Assembly: GCA_014621425.1 (NCBI GenBank)
Contig: JAANBB010000057.1
Span: 1-64,000 of the forward strand
Length of the DNA stretch: 64,000 nt
Source of the DNA: Cylindrodendrum hubeiense
Lineage: Eukaryota; Ascomycota; Sordariomycetes; Hypocreales; Nectriaceae
Direction of reading: 5' to 3'
The notes under the pieces are model-generated. The model had not been told where the DNA came from. It made no database searches and saw only the letters and a program-made list of their open reading frames with translations. Shown here piece by piece: positions 54,466-62,896 of this stretch. The translations under genes and the position numbers were made by a program. Each line of letters starts with the position of its first letter. Within the stretch, counting starts at the first letter, position 1.

Positions 54466-56101
54466 TTAAATCTTCGATGCCGCCACTGATTTCCTTGCTT
54501 CGACGAGCTCTCTGAGGATCAGAGCCGACTTCTTTGGTGTTCGCTCCAAGGTGTCGTAGTCTGTGAACGTCACTCCAAATCTTGGCCCGTAGCCGTCCGA
54601 CCATTCTGGGTTCATCCAAGTTAGTCAAGTTCGATAAGGCAGGCGCTTATGTGACCTGGTATTGGGGGATTGAACAGAAACTTACCAAGGTTGTCCATGA
54701 GGGACCATGCGAAATATCCATTGATGACAGAACCATCCTCGGTCACTGACTTGCCTATGGCATCAAGATGATCCTCAAAATACCGAATACGATACTCGTC
54801 ATTGACAGACTCTTCTTTGGTCATCTTATCCTCGCCTGGGCATGGGCACCCATTCTCAGTGATGTAAATTGGCTTCCCGTATAGGCGGTATATCCGGGTC
54901 AAGTGCTTGCGAAACATTCCAGGGCAAGATCTCAACCAGTGGAGTCCGCTCTCCTCACCGACAGGTTCACCCTTCTTGTTCTCTTGGAGCTCATCGATAT
55001 TTCCGATGAAATCATTCTCGGACGCTGGTTGTTCACGGTGGCGAGCGAACTGAGAGGTGTAGTAATTCATGCCGTAGAAATCAGACTCGGCTCTTTGCAA
55101 GATGGCCATGTCCGAAGCGGTAAACTCGGGGAGCCTGCTGCCCAGTTGCTCTCGCATACACTTGGGGTAGTCTTGTTGCAAGCTGTTAAGCGGTCAGCAA
55201 CGAACAGAAGCTTTAGAACAGGGGAATGCTTACAAAATGGGGTTCGCAAACCAGCCCACGTGGAATTCCATTCGTCGGACCGCTGCTTCGCTGTCTCGAG
55301 GATCATTGCTATCCCAAGGCTCATAGAAATCACCATTGAGGCTGATTCCGATCCTACCCTTTTGAGAAGGTCGAAAATCTTCGTTGTACGCGGCCACGGC
55401 ACGAGCATGGCTCATGATTAGGGCTTTACCAACAATCCAGGGCTCAGTCGCCGTGTTTCCCTCCGTTGACTGTTTGTTGGTACTGCTTCTTCCAGGCGCA
55501 TTAATCCCGCTTGCATACCCCTGAGGATATTAGTATAATTCGAAGGGAATTGTGGTGGACAACTCACGAAAATGGACACAATCCATGGCTCGTTGAGGGT
55601 GATCCAGTCTCTAACACGATCGCCGAATCGCTCATAGCAAACTCGAGCATATCTCTCAAAGTCCTTTTGTGACTCTTCCACATCTAGCCACCCTCCATAG
55701 CGGTCATGGAGTTCTTGTGGCAAGTCCCAATGGTAAAGTGTCACCCAAGGAGTGATCCCACGGGTAATCAAGCCATCAATGAGCCGGTTGTAAAAGTCGA
55801 TACCGGCTTCATTCACCGGGTCGTCTCTACCCCCAAGAGGGATAACTCGTGACCAAGAAATTGAGAACCGGTATGTCTGAGCCTTGTACTTCTTCAATAG
55901 ATCCAAGTCTTCCTCTAGACGGTGATAGTGGTCGCAAGCAACATCACCGCTGGCACCCTTGGTTCGAGTGGGCTCCAAGTGACAAAACGTGTCCCAAATT
56001 GATTTCCCGCGTCCGTCTTCCGCGACAGCGCCTTCAATTTGGTAGGACGCAGTAGCGAACCCAAGTTCAAAGTCTCGAGGCAACGACGTTGTACCCGACA
56101 T
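54466..56101 (-). CDS. GH1 beta-glucosidase, intracellular type
   Basis: Four exons on the minus strand: 56101-55568, 55520-55234, 55182-54686 and 54605-54466, 485 aa. GH1 landmarks in order: FELGFATASYQIEGA, the acid/base Glu in TLNEPW, GYASGINAPG (restored by the first splice) and the nucleophile Glu in YITENG, then SLMDNLEWSDGYGPRFG at the last splice. There is no signal peptide, so it should act in the cytosol on imported disaccharides or short oligosaccharides. Some fungal GH1 enzymes cleave cellobiose, sophorose and laminaribiose. It is divergent from an MFS sugar transporter with a 620-bp promoter carrying repeated TTTCCCCG boxes; the arrangement strongly suggests joint expression. Natural substrate not certain. 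Confidence 0.93.
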
Positions 56102-56724
56102 TGTCACGTTGGGGCTGACTCAATGACAAACTAAACAGGGTTCGGTACGAAGTTCGGTACGAAGAAGCGCCGGGGGAAATTGAGACAAGAAGCGCGATAC
56201 AGCTCATCAATAAATTCAGCCGCTTGACCGTTCTCATGCCCTTGCACACTTTATACCCAGCCATTCCGTTACCCCTCTCAGGCTTGCCAACGTGATAGAG
56301 CATCAAGGATAAAACCCCGTTTTTTTGATGCGCGGTGGCGTGGGGAGAAACGCCGATCTCTTGCATTTCCCCGTCGGGAGTCGCCATTTCCCCGTCGAGG
56401 TTTCCCCATCGAGTCTGGTGGACTCCATTACCTGGGTCAATACCTGGTTACTGCAGCACATTTCCCCGTTTCGCCGCAGCCGACCCCGGACGTAGGCTCC
56501 CCACGGGGAAAGTTTTGTCGCCTGACCCTGTTTGGCGAAGTGGGTGTTCGCGGCTCCTCGTGTCTTACGACCCTTCTCCAAGGTACATGAAGCTATATAT
56601 AATTGGAGCGAGATGCCTTCCGAAAACTCGTTTCCAAGCTCAATATCCTAGTCACTGCTTCTCTCACATTGCAGGGGTCTTGTTCAGCTTGTTGGATTTG
56701 ATCCTACCTTGCACTTCGTCAATC
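56102..56724. promoter_or_regulatory. shared GH1/MFS promoter with repeated TTTCCCCG boxes
   Basis: The divergent promoter holds TTTCCCCGTCG at 56366-56376 and 56387-56397, TTTCCCCATCG at 56401-56411, TTTCCCCGTTTCG at 56461-56473, an inverted CGGGGAAA at 56504-56511, and ACCCCGTTT near 56314. Similar boxes lie at 60650-60658 (ATTCCCCGT, between the regulator and the glycosidase) and 60331-60340 (TTTCCCCGAC, within the regulator's first intron). They could be sites for the neighbouring Zn2Cys6 protein or for general carbon or stress factors (CCCCT/CCCCG-like). Binding is inferred only. Confidence 0.55.
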
Positions 56725-60476: not shown

Positions 60477-60924
60477 TGCAGGGGGCTCTGCACACAATGG
60501 GAGCCGGAGAAAAGGGCAACGGGCGTTTTGCTGCTTCAACTGAAGGCGGGGATTTGTGCCGGTCAAATACTTTACTTACGGCTAAATGGCTCGGCTGGGG
60601 CGACTCGTCTGCTGATCCAGTCCCCCGCAATTAGACAGTCATTTCTCCTATTCCCCGTGTAGATCCTGGACTAGACGAGCTAGCCTCACAACGTGGCGGG
60701 GTAAAGACCTGGGGAAGAGTTGAATTGAAGTCGGCCCAGGAACCTGGACAAGGTTGCATCCTTGGAATACTGTCACGGCCCTCGAGAGCAATGATTCAAG
60801 ATGGAGGTGAGGGAATATGTATATAAGGGCCGATCAGCAGCGTCATTACCACCATTAATGACCTGCATGCAACCCTACAATCACCAAAGATCATATCTTG
60901 ATATCATTTCACCTCGCTGTCATT
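60477..60924. promoter_or_regulatory. divergent promoter of the regulator and the secreted glycosidase
   Basis: 448 bp. ATTCCCCGT at 60650-60658 and GGCGGGG near 60695 resemble the boxes in the GH1/MFS promoter. A TATA-like ATGTATATAAGG lies about 95 bp upstream of the glycosidase start. No gene. Confidence 0.45.
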
Positions 60925-62896
60925 ATGAAGTTCAGCCGGACAGGCTCGCTTCTGGCTTTGGCTTGCGCATCAGTTGCCAGCGCTCTGCCAGCCCACGAAG
61001 AGAGGTCGGGATATAAGGGTAGCCAAAAACCATCCTGCCGCTTTGGTCTTGAATGGTCCCAGCAGGATGTGCTTGATCGAACAGATGACTTCATTTGGGA
61101 TCTGTTGTACTGGGAGGGCAAATTCCATCAGAACGATGTGGCCTACAACACCAAAAATGGCATGTCATATGATGGAACGCAGATCGATTGGGTCACGGGC
61201 AAGCGCACCGCGAAACACCCATTCAGCGCGGCAAGCAAAGAGGTCAGTGTATAAGCCCCTCAGAGTTCGTGACATTTGCTCATAATCATCACCAAATAGG
61301 CACTTCAAATCATCCTCTACGCACAAGCTATCGCGGGCAACCGACAGGCTGCTCGGTTTTTGACTCCTGATGATCTCAAGGCAGCTCCTGCTTTTGCAGC
61401 CTCCATCATGGAGGTCAAATTGAAAACCTACCTTCAGTTCAATGAAACCTACCCTGGATTTGGCGGCTTTTTGCCCTGGATGCTGACCGACGGGGATGCC
61501 GTGAGGCCCACCGATGACTGGGTCAATAGAGTCCCAGGTTTGGACAACGGGTAAGCAAGAGCCTTCAGTAGCCAAAGACACGTCTAACATCGCGTATCAA
61601 GAGAACTTATTTGGGCTGTGTATGGCTGTGTCGAAGCTCTCAGAACTCAACACAAGTCAAAGTTTACCAAAATTGCCAATGGCTGGCAAGACTGGCTAGA
61701 CTATGTCGCGTCAACGGCAGCGGATATCTTCCACATTGGGGATGGCAAAGTTTGCGCCGTCACTGCAATTGCAGACCAGACTTTGCCGATCGATGATTCG
61801 AAGCAGAGTTATAAGTGCGAAACCGCAACTTATCTTGATGATCCCTATGAAGGCGAGCTCTTGACGTACTTCTTGCAGTTCTTCGGGGACTTGTCCAAGA
61901 AGGAGAAAAAGAAGCTCTGGGAATATAAGCGTCCCAAGCTGGAAAGTGATGAGTATAACTTGGGTGGCGTTGGCCCGATTACGGTCCGAAAAGGTGAGTG
62001 GATTTCCTACTTCTCTAATAATTTCTACATAAGGATATATCTGACGGTTTTATATCTCAAGGCTATTGGTTCTCCAGCCACGAAATTTGGAACCAGCTCG
62101 AGTTGCCGTACTACGACGTCGATATCATCCGGTAAGTCTCGCTCGGTATTCTCAAGAGCTCCATACTCATGCTTTCCCCTTAGTCGCCTCTTCAAGAATG
62201 GAGAGCGAGTAAGAACTTGTAACTCGGTTGTCACCAAAGTTCCCGGGATGTATGCGTCCATCAACAACTCGACCGACCCAGAGACAGATACCATCATTGG
62301 GTACATTTCCCCTGCCGGGATACCATCGGTTGCAAGTCAAACAGATCAATATCTTGAGGTTATCACCCCGTACAGTGTTTTCCCAACTGTTATGTTCAAT
62401 AAGGCTGTCGGCCTCGCTTGGTGGAGGAACATGATTGTTGGAAAGAAGATGCAAAGTAGGTCAACAACATCCCTCATGTGACAGGATTTAAAGAATGCTG
62501 ATTCGAAATTCTGCAGATCCATATGGAAGCACAGAGTCCACGAGGGTGGATGGTGAATTGGTCTCGGCGCTGTTAACCTGGGACAGCAAGGTTACCACTG
62601 TCGTGGCCCTTCTGGGTGGCGTTACAGATCTTGTTCGGCAAAAAATGAAGGCGGACGGAATTTATGAAGAGTTTGTGCACATTGCAAAGGTACGCTTCCC
62701 ATCGTCTACTTCACTTGTCGCCGTCTCTGCACATTTCACATTCTGCTCTTTGACTGGTTTGAACTGGATGCTAACAACAATATAGCGGGAATATTCACTG
62801 GTATTTGATGATCTGAAGGGGGAGAATGTTGATTTCTGCCTGCCAAAGGTGGCGGTGCCGGTCGCTGGCCTGGATGATTTCACAGCATGCCAGTAG
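60925..62896 (+). CDS. secreted glycosidase, probable GH162-type endo-beta-1,2-glucanase
   Basis: Seven exons: 60925-61242, 61300-61550, 61602-61993, 62062-62131, 62184-62455, 62517-62689 and 62786-62896, 528 aa. A 20-residue signal peptide (MKFSRTGSLLALACASVASA) directs secretion. The alpha-helical body with YWFSSHEIWNQLELPYYD, GMYASINNSTD, ITPYSVFPTVMFNKAVGLAWW and NPYGSTESTRVDGE is what I recall of the fungal GH162 endo-beta-1,2-glucanases related to bacterial GH144. Asp446 (in RVDGE) sits where I remember the catalytic base of the characterised Talaromyces enzyme (D446), and Glu263 near its acid (E262), though Glu273/275 in DPYEGEL are alternatives. I could not run a search, so the class is a moderate call. 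All six introns keep frame. Divergent from the Zn2Cys6 regulator. Confidence 0.62.

What the first reader, a model, noticed from the sequence alone, without database searches (positions are those of the whole stretch)
54466..62896. Self-contained sugar-use cluster: intracellular GH1, transporter, Zn2Cys6 regulator and secreted GH162-like enzyme
Four adjacent genes cover each step of a pathway: a secreted glycosidase I assign to the GH162 endo-beta-1,2-glucanase type, an MFS sugar transporter, a cytosolic GH1 beta-glucosidase lacking a signal peptide, and a Zn2Cys6 regulator. Gene order is two divergent pairs, each with its own shared promoter. GH162 enzymes release sophoro-oligosaccharides; some fungal GH1 enzymes cleave sophorose. 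This predicts a dedicated beta-1,2-glucan utilisation cluster in a fungus, which I do not know to be described. The weakest link is the GH162 call.
Basis: partly seen in the sequence, partly recalled or inferred. Interest (0 to 1): 0.78.

Follow-up and report, generated by a model that had tools for sequence, protein, structure and literature searches.

The report
Fungal beta-1,2-glucan cluster with ACE3 regulator
Four neighbouring fungal genes look like a complete kit for eating beta-1,2-glucan, and their switch is the counterpart of ACE3, the regulator that turns on industrial cellulase production, which may explain why a beta-1,2-linked sugar is such a strong cellulase trigger.

Summary
Four intact spliced genes lie at 54466-62896 as two divergent pairs: intracellular GH1, sugar transporter, Zn2Cys6 regulator, secreted GH162. 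The 'weakest link' is solid: the 528-aa protein is 64.5% identical over 496 residues to the crystallised endo-beta-1,2-glucanase 6IMU, catalytic residues conserved. The organism is Cylindrodendrum hubeiense. In 26 other species GH162 shares a contig with homologues of the regulator and/or transporter; in 15 of them locus tags are 1-4 apart; in 8 the contig exceeds 1 Mb and says little. New here: the regulator is the orthologue of Trichoderma ACE3, essential for cellulase production in T. reesei; transporter and GH1 match CRT2 and CEL1B, the neighbours of ace3. CRT2 carried none of the sugars tested in yeast; sophorose is not mentioned in that paper. No Trichoderma GH162 appears among the 120 listed of 309 hits. 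Best reading: a conserved fungal beta-1,2-glucan utilisation cluster. Bolder: the T. reesei ACE3 locus is its remnant, which would explain induction by sophorose. The ACE3-GH1-transporter trio was in print in 2014; no held paper contains both 'ace3' and 'GH162'. Activity and regulation in this fungus are inferred.

The parts
54466..56101 (-). GH1 beta-glucosidase, 485 aa, no signal peptide seen; exons 56101-55568, 55520-55234, 55182-54686, 54605-54466; CEL1B type
   Evidence: model; PF00232 489 bits; best PDB 6kht 883 bits, 5jbo 876 bits; next entry 587 bits
56102..56724 (.). shared divergent promoter of GH1 and transporter (623 bp), with five TTYCCCCRT copies (56366, 56387, 56401, 56461, and 56503 on the minus strand); candidate element only
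56725..58321 (+). MFS sugar porter, 511 aa; exons 56725-56876, 56938-58321; orthologue of Trichoderma CRT2/TRE77517
   Evidence: (model)
58523..60476 (-). Zn2Cys6 transcription factor, 613 aa, ACE3 orthologue; exons 60476-60357, 60300-58753, 58696-58523
   Evidence: (model)
60477..60924 (.). shared divergent promoter of regulator and GH162 (448 bp), with one TTCCCCGT copy at 60651
60925..62896 (+). secreted GH162 endo-beta-1,2-glucanase, 528 aa; exons 60925-61242, 61300-61550, 61602-61993, 62062-62131, 62184-62455, 62517-62689, 62786-62896; predicted acid E273, base D457, family histidine H327
   Evidence: (model)

Best explanation
A dedicated beta-1,2-glucan utilisation cluster under an ACE3-type regulator. 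GH162 is secreted and cuts beta-1,2-glucan (for instance bacterial cyclic or linear beta-1,2-glucan) into sophoro-oligosaccharides; the MFS porter imports them; the cytosolic GH1 splits them to glucose; the Zn2Cys6 protein responds to a pathway sugar, probably sophorose or a relative, and switches both divergent promoters on. Shown: gene structure, family assignments, catalytic residues, conserved linkage of GH162 with regulator and transporter, orthology of the regulator to Trichoderma ACE3 and of the transporter to CRT2. Inferred: the substrates of transporter and GH1 in this fungus, the sensed sugar, the direct targets. Evolutionary corollary, less certain: the T. reesei ace3-crt2-cel1b locus is the same cluster after loss of GH162, its sophorose response rewired to cellulases.
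For: GH162: (the three residues are invariant in 16 aligned sequences, this one included); single copy in this genome. Linkage: 26 same-species contigs join GH162 with regulator and/or transporter, all three on 7; a control with jittered lengths (GH162 against the regulator list only) gives 0.07 matches. Locus tags are 1-4 apart in all 15 of these species whose names carry tags for both genes. ACE3: with T. harzianum P0184 as query the window gene gives a best stretch of 503 bits, the next gene 194; tree support 99/99 for a group with the Trichoderma rows and this gene but without the nearest paralogue; primers of T. reesei 77513/ace3 translate to DKSAAIL, present here and in 110 of 120 homologues, and to STTVVG*, like the Trichoderma tails. 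In T. reesei, tre77517/crt2, ace3 and cel1b are adjacent; a short ace3 transcript rises about 40-fold with sophorose; cel1b is induced on cellulose or sophorose; CRT2 moves none of the sugars tested and 'sophorose' does not occur in that paper; recombinant CEL1B splits sophorose.
Against: CEL1B also splits cellobiose and is weak on everything tested; CEL1A and BGL3I are better on sophorose; deleting cel1b barely changes cellulase output. The full-length ace3 transcript rises only about twofold with sophorose; the strongly induced short one lacks a complete DNA-binding domain. CRT2 is placed near the cellobiose carriers CDT-2 and CltA, an earlier study reported slower lactose use without it, and it is expressed 300-fold less than crt1. 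The ACE3 site that I recall, CGGAN(T/A)3, is not enriched in the two promoters (0 and 1 copies). In 8 of the 26 species the shared contig exceeds 1 Mb and there are no readable tags, so linkage there is weak. GH162 linkage could not be shown for Fusarium, and GH162 occurs in basidiomycetes from which no regulator is among the 120 listed. The genome carries a paralogous TF-MFS-GH1 trio on C25, and GH162 is not there, so such trios also serve other sugars. In the regulator tree the A. clavatus, Rasamsonia, Coniochaeta and two Penicillium rows are not resolved from that paralogue. No expression or enzyme data exist here for this fungus.
Confidence: 0.78

Rival explanations
1. The trio is a cellobiose or lactose uptake and cellulase-signalling module, as read in T. 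reesei, and GH162 is only a frequent neighbour.
For: ACE3 controls cellulases; CRT2 groups with CDT-2/CltA and an earlier study linked it to lactose use; CEL1B cleaves cellobiose; the C25 trio has no GH162.
Against: GH162 tags lie 1-4 from regulator and/or transporter in 15 species, hard to explain for a passenger; CRT2 does not transport cellobiose or lactose in yeast.
Confidence: 0.12
2. The cluster does act on beta-1,2-glucan, but mainly to disarm or detect bacteria whose glucans are beta-1,2-linked, not to feed.
For: Natural beta-1,2-glucans are described as bacterial polymers with roles in symbiosis, pathogenesis and osmoregulation (abstract openings in the listings).
Against: An importer and a cytosolic beta-glucosidase are what a feeding pathway needs; a defence would not need them (inference).
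Confidence: 0.1
3. On the evolutionary question only: Trichoderma never had GH162 in this locus; other lineages added GH162 to an older trio.
For: In these lists GH162 appears in basidiomycetes without the regulator; a trio without GH162 also exists as a paralogue.
Against: Linked copies occur in Hypocreales near Trichoderma (Cordyceps, Tolypocladium) and in Eurotiales far from it, so one loss in Trichoderma is simpler than repeated gain.
Confidence: 0.25

Closest known systems
T. reesei ace3 - crt2 (tre77517) - cel1b locus
   Same: orthologous regulator and transporter, GH1 of the same type; genes adjacent (orthology)
   Different: no GH162 named Trichoderma among the 120 listed hits; studied as a cellulase-induction locus
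TfSGL of Talaromyces funiculosus (GH162, PDB 6IMU)
   Same: 64.5% identity over 496 residues, same catalytic residues
   Different: known as a single enzyme; its gene neighbourhood is not mentioned in the passages I saw, and the founding paper was not held
S. griseus SGR_2422-2427 beta-1,2-glucan cluster (GH1, ABC transporter, GH193)
   Same: same logic: endo-glucanase, importer, GH1 beta-glucosidase (first of two parts of the discussion)
   Different: bacterial; ABC transporter instead of MFS; GH193 instead of GH162; no regulator mentioned in the part read
A. fumigatus / A. clavatus ace3 homologue with GH1 and hexose transporter
   Same: same trio reported in 2014 (passage); the A. clavatus GH162 and regulator hits share one 4.5-Mb contig
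   Different: a GH162 neighbour is not mentioned in the passages seen; orthology of the A. clavatus regulator to this one rather than to the C25 paralogue is not resolved

Membership tests
GH162 endo-beta-1,2-glucanase | full-length sequence similarity to the founding enzyme TfSGL | tested here: met
   E 9.8e-227, residues 32-527; 320 of 496 identical
GH162 endo-beta-1,2-glucanase | general acid (E262 in TfSGL), general base (D446) and family histidine (H316) | tested here: met
   maps them to E273, D457, H327; residue roles from passages of PMC12102758
GH162 endo-beta-1,2-glucanase | endo-hydrolysis of beta-1,2-glucan | not testable with these tools
   needs an enzyme assay
ACE3 regulators | complete Zn2Cys6 domain plus fungal transcription-factor domain | tested here: met
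   (PF00172, PF04082); six cysteines across exons 1-2
ACE3 regulators | orthology to Trichoderma ACE3 | tested here: met
   best place; tree, 99/99 group with 4 Trichoderma rows (the tool warns that the paralogue rows are long and their place unsure); primer peptides. No hit named T. reesei was listed; the link to T. reesei ACE3 runs through its published primers and synteny
ACE3 regulators | conserved C-terminal tail (LTRLDSKASD and on) | tested here: met
   third exon 58696-58523
ACE3 regulators | control of cellulase genes | not testable with these tools
   needs deletion and RNA-seq
CRT2 (TRE77517) transporters | best match of Trichoderma homologues, and neighbourhood of ace3 | tested here: met
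   T. atroviride P0272 79% here, next gene 43%; P0288 75% and 43%; neighbourhood in T. reesei
CRT2 (TRE77517) transporters | import of sophoro-oligosaccharides (hypothesis) | not testable with these tools
   the word sophorose does not occur in PMC10364367
CEL1B-type intracellular GH1 | closest to 5jbo/6kht among solved GH1, no signal peptide | tested here: met
   (876-883 bits) against 527-555 bits for the two best paralogues (partial frames of about 430 aa). That 5jbo is the T. harzianum CEL1B counterpart is recalled
fungal beta-1,2-glucan utilisation cluster | co-expression on beta-1,2-glucan or sophorose | not testable with these tools
   no expression data for this fungus

The most novel reading that the evidence does not exclude
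The ACE3-CRT2-CEL1B locus that takes part in cellulase induction in T. reesei is a remodelled beta-1,2-glucan utilisation cluster. ACE3 and CRT2 evolved to respond to and import sophoro-oligosaccharides made by GH162; Trichoderma lost GH162, and ACE3 was rewired onto cellulase genes, leaving sophorose as their strongest inducer though cellulose has no beta-1,2 links. CRT2, so far a carrier without a known substrate, would be the sophorose transporter or sensor.
Probability: 0.42. Interest if true: 0.92.

Novelty: new variant of a known kind. Interest (0 to 1): 0.78.

Why it matters
Sophorose is called the most potent known inducer of Trichoderma cellulases, with citations back to 1962 (passages and reference list), yet cellulose has no beta-1,2 links (established knowledge); the usual view is that a beta-glucosidase makes it by transglycosylation. 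Finding the orthologues of the regulator, its orphan transporter and its GH1 next to an enzyme whose family acts on beta-1,2-glucan gives a concrete alternative that single-gene assays can test. It also proposes a complete fungal pathway for beta-1,2-glucan, and a substrate for CRT2.

Tried and rejected
Regulatory motif: the 8-mer TTCCCCGT occurs 8 times in the window, 5 of them in the two divergent promoters (1.7% of the sequence; binomial 7e-8, 0.002 after 32,896 8-mers; chosen after looking). TTTCCCCRTCG occurs 70 times in the genome (backwards control 40), and by the listed places only the GH1-MFS promoter has copies close together, 3 within 46 bp; the next closest pair is over 5 kb apart. 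But the TF-GH162 promoter has a single TTCCCCGT and no relative's DNA was at hand, so this is a candidate only; a local duplication would look the same. The recalled ACE3 site and the CGG-N-CCG and CGG-N11-CCG forms were not enriched. CreA-like SYGGRG sites are denser in the TF-GH162 promoter (6 in 448 bp; window average 4.9 per kb), which is compatible with glucose repression but weak.

Searches for DNA of relatives: GH162 and the transporter in viral contigs gave nothing; GH162 in genome contigs gave two bacterial loci. Synteny was therefore read from locus tags and contig lengths in the protein listings, which show 120 of 309, 120 of 210 and 120 of 855 hits. Two GH162 rows and one regulator row have no contig length. 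I saw no species in which tags with the same prefix lie far apart, but I did not script that check.

Considered and dropped: another glycosidase family for the secreted protein (settles it); structure prediction, not needed at 64.5% identity to a crystal structure; a residue test of GH1 specificity against SGR_2426, whose sequence was not at hand. My first MFS exon limits were one base off on both sides (56877/56939); one search gives 56876/56938, the protein is unchanged.

Literature: two papers were not held, the 2019 JBC GH162 paper and the 2019 JBC ACE3 paper. Novelty rests on listings: no held paper contains both 'ace3' and 'GH162'; most subscription journals are missing.
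Full report
What is there. The window is a piece of a 152,535-base contig of a 47.5-Mb fungal genome. The best match to the secreted protein is 100% identical, is named Cylindrodendrum hubeiense G7Z17_g4164, and sits on a contig of the same length, so the genome is that fungus (Nectriaceae, Hypocreales; placement recalled). Four genes lie between 54466 and 62896. All 12 introns are GT-AG and 47-96 bases long. The pairs are divergent, with 623 and 448 bases between their start codons. 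The regulator needs a third exon, 58696-58523, giving 613 aa and a tail that aligns without gaps to its close homologues.

The secreted enzyme. phmmer against solved structures returns two chain sequences, both endo-beta-1,2-glucanase (6imu/6imv and 6imw), best E 9.8e-227 over residues 32-527. The alignment is gap-free, with 320 of 496 residues identical. TfSGL residues E262 (acid), D446 (base) and H316, named in passages of PMC12102758, fall on E273, D457 and H327, and all three columns are invariant in an alignment of 16 sequences including this one. The gene is single-copy here. The N-terminus looks like a signal peptide (by eye). Some sources call the homologues 'GPI anchored', but this protein has no hydrophobic C-terminal tail (by eye). 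Family membership is met; activity is not testable here.

The regulator is ACE3. The six Trichoderma homologues listed share 52-55% identity over 93-98% of the 570-aa query, which lacked the third exon. With T. harzianum P0184 as query, the window gene is the best place in the genome: pieces of 503, 109 and 76 bits, against 194, 93, 57 and 30 for the next gene, on C25. In a maximum-likelihood tree of 33 rows, four Trichoderma rows and the window gene fall in one group (support 99/99) that leaves out the C25 paralogue; three further paralogues lie outside. The tool warns that the paralogue rows are long and their place unsure, and the rows of A. clavatus, Rasamsonia, Lipomyces, Coniochaeta, Diplogelasinospora and two Penicillium species are not resolved from C25. 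Primers used to clone and screen T. reesei gene 77513, designated ace3, are printed in PMC3922861 (section 14 read). Translated, they give DKSAAIL, present in this protein and in 110 of 120 homologues, and the terminus STTVVG*, which resembles the Trichoderma tails. No hit named T. reesei was listed, so the link to T. reesei ACE3 rests on these peptides and on synteny.

The transporter and the GH1. T. atroviride P0272 matches the window transporter at 79% and the next gene at 43%; T. ceciliae P0288 gives 75% and 43%. PMC10364367 states that tre77517, named CRT2, lies next to ace3 and cel1b (passage). The GH1 is closest to 6kht and 5jbo (883 and 876 bits); its two best paralogues give 527-555 bits to these (partial frames). 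That 5jbo is a Trichoderma enzyme of the CEL1B type is recalled.

Linkage in other species. The protein listings carry contig lengths and locus tags. Comparing 119, 120 and 119 typed rows, 26 contigs carry GH162 together with the regulator and/or transporter, and 7 carry all three; jittered lengths give 0.07 chance matches for GH162 against the regulator. By the names in the listings each match is one species throughout. In 15 of the 26 the names carry tags for both genes, and there GH162 is 1-2 tags from the regulator and/or 2-4 from the transporter: among them Stachybotrys chlorohalonatus 05738/05737/05735, Epichloe bromicola 4674/4673/4671, Cosmosporella 44570/44560/44530 (steps of ten), Claviceps digitariae 6949/6950/6951. 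Of the other 11, three contigs are of 122-601 kb and eight exceed 1 Mb, where sharing a contig alone says little. The 15 with tags include Hypocreales, Rasamsonia (Eurotiales; its numbers look like JGI model numbers) and Myotisia (Onygenales) (orders recalled). PMC3922861 reports GH1 and transporter beside the ace3 homologues of A. fumigatus and A. clavatus (passage). GH1 linkage in the 26 was not tested. Fusarium species have all three proteins, but these lists do not join GH162 to the others; in F. solani regulator and transporter share a contig.

Absence in Trichoderma. Six of 120 regulator hits and five of 120 transporter hits are named Trichoderma; none of the 120 listed GH162 hits is. 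That list shows 120 of 309 hits, down to 47% identity; an orthologue would be expected well above that (inference), but only a genome search would prove absence.

What it likely does. The predicted route is secreted GH162, import of sophoro-oligosaccharides, cytosolic GH1, with the regulator controlling both promoters. Facts from T. reesei that fit: deletion of ace3 abolishes cellulase activity (PMC3922861 passages); ace3 exons 3-4 rise about 40-fold on glucose/sophorose, though exons 1-2 only about twofold, and the short transcript lacks a complete zinc cluster (PMC7412840 passages); cel1b is induced on cellulose or sophorose (PMC9118834 passages); [quoted passage not shown] Facts that fit less well: CEL1B splits cellobiose as well as sophorose and is weak throughout, CEL1A and BGL3I are better on sophorose (PMC6240962 passages and section 8); deleting cel1b alone changes little (PMC9118834 passages); CRT2 is placed near cellobiose carriers, and an earlier study reported delayed lactose uptake without it (PMC10364367).

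Novelty. The trio of regulator, GH1 and transporter is known (2014). GH162 as a family is known (2019; seen through PMC12102758). Bacterial beta-1,2-glucan clusters are known (PMC12369401, first part of its discussion). Joining GH162 to the ACE3 locus, in this genome and in others, was not found in the listings. PMC7288487 passages mention beta-1,2-glucan-induced glucanases and glucosidases of Acremonium whose sequences were not determined, so fungal use of this glucan has precedent.

Paralogues. The genome has a second regulator-GH1-transporter trio on C25 (regulator core 61%, GH1 52%, transporter about 32%), and further ACE3-like regulators within about 10 kb of sugar porters on C279, C486, C212, C445 and C57. 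GH162 is at none of them. The regulator-transporter module is thus probably reused for several sugars, which is why GH162 is the informative member here.

Noticed in passing
G000:C25:68106-73745 (loci L034, L035): Paralogous trio: MFS, ACE3-like Zn2Cys6 regulator and GH1 (52% to the window GH1), no GH162; sugar unknown.
   Followed up: partly
L041 (Colwellia MAG), GH162 match at 8001-9428: A bacterial GH162 relative (33% identity) in a locus with a GH3 beta-glucosidase and a LacI-type regulator, a plausible bacterial beta-1,2-glucan locus.
   Followed up: partly
L040 (Elusimicrobia MAG), 8001-9506: A second bacterial GH162 relative (36%) inside a 697-aa ORF between two very long ORFs (2521 and 2457 aa).
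   Followed up: no
regulator tree: The Penicillium canescens regulator sits inside the Nectriaceae/Fusarium group (100/99), and its transporter has the neighbouring tag, suggesting that the cluster moved between Hypocreales and Penicillium.
   Followed up: no
Lipomyces starkeyi, P0228 and P0287: Regulator and transporter homologues share a 23-kb contig length in a yeast; no Lipomyces GH162 among the 120 listed hits.
   Followed up: no
window 56366-56513: Dense TTYCCCCRT repeats in the GH1-MFS promoter, the only place in the genome listing where TTTCCCCRTCG copies lie close together.
   Followed up: partly
window 52550-53644: An ORF resembling an amidase (by eye) ends just upstream of the cluster; no sign that it belongs to it.
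   Followed up: no
L023:640-2406 (contig C523 64640-66406): A beta-lactamase-family serine hydrolase (Pfam PF00144) lies downstream of the cluster, beyond the window end.
   Followed up: no
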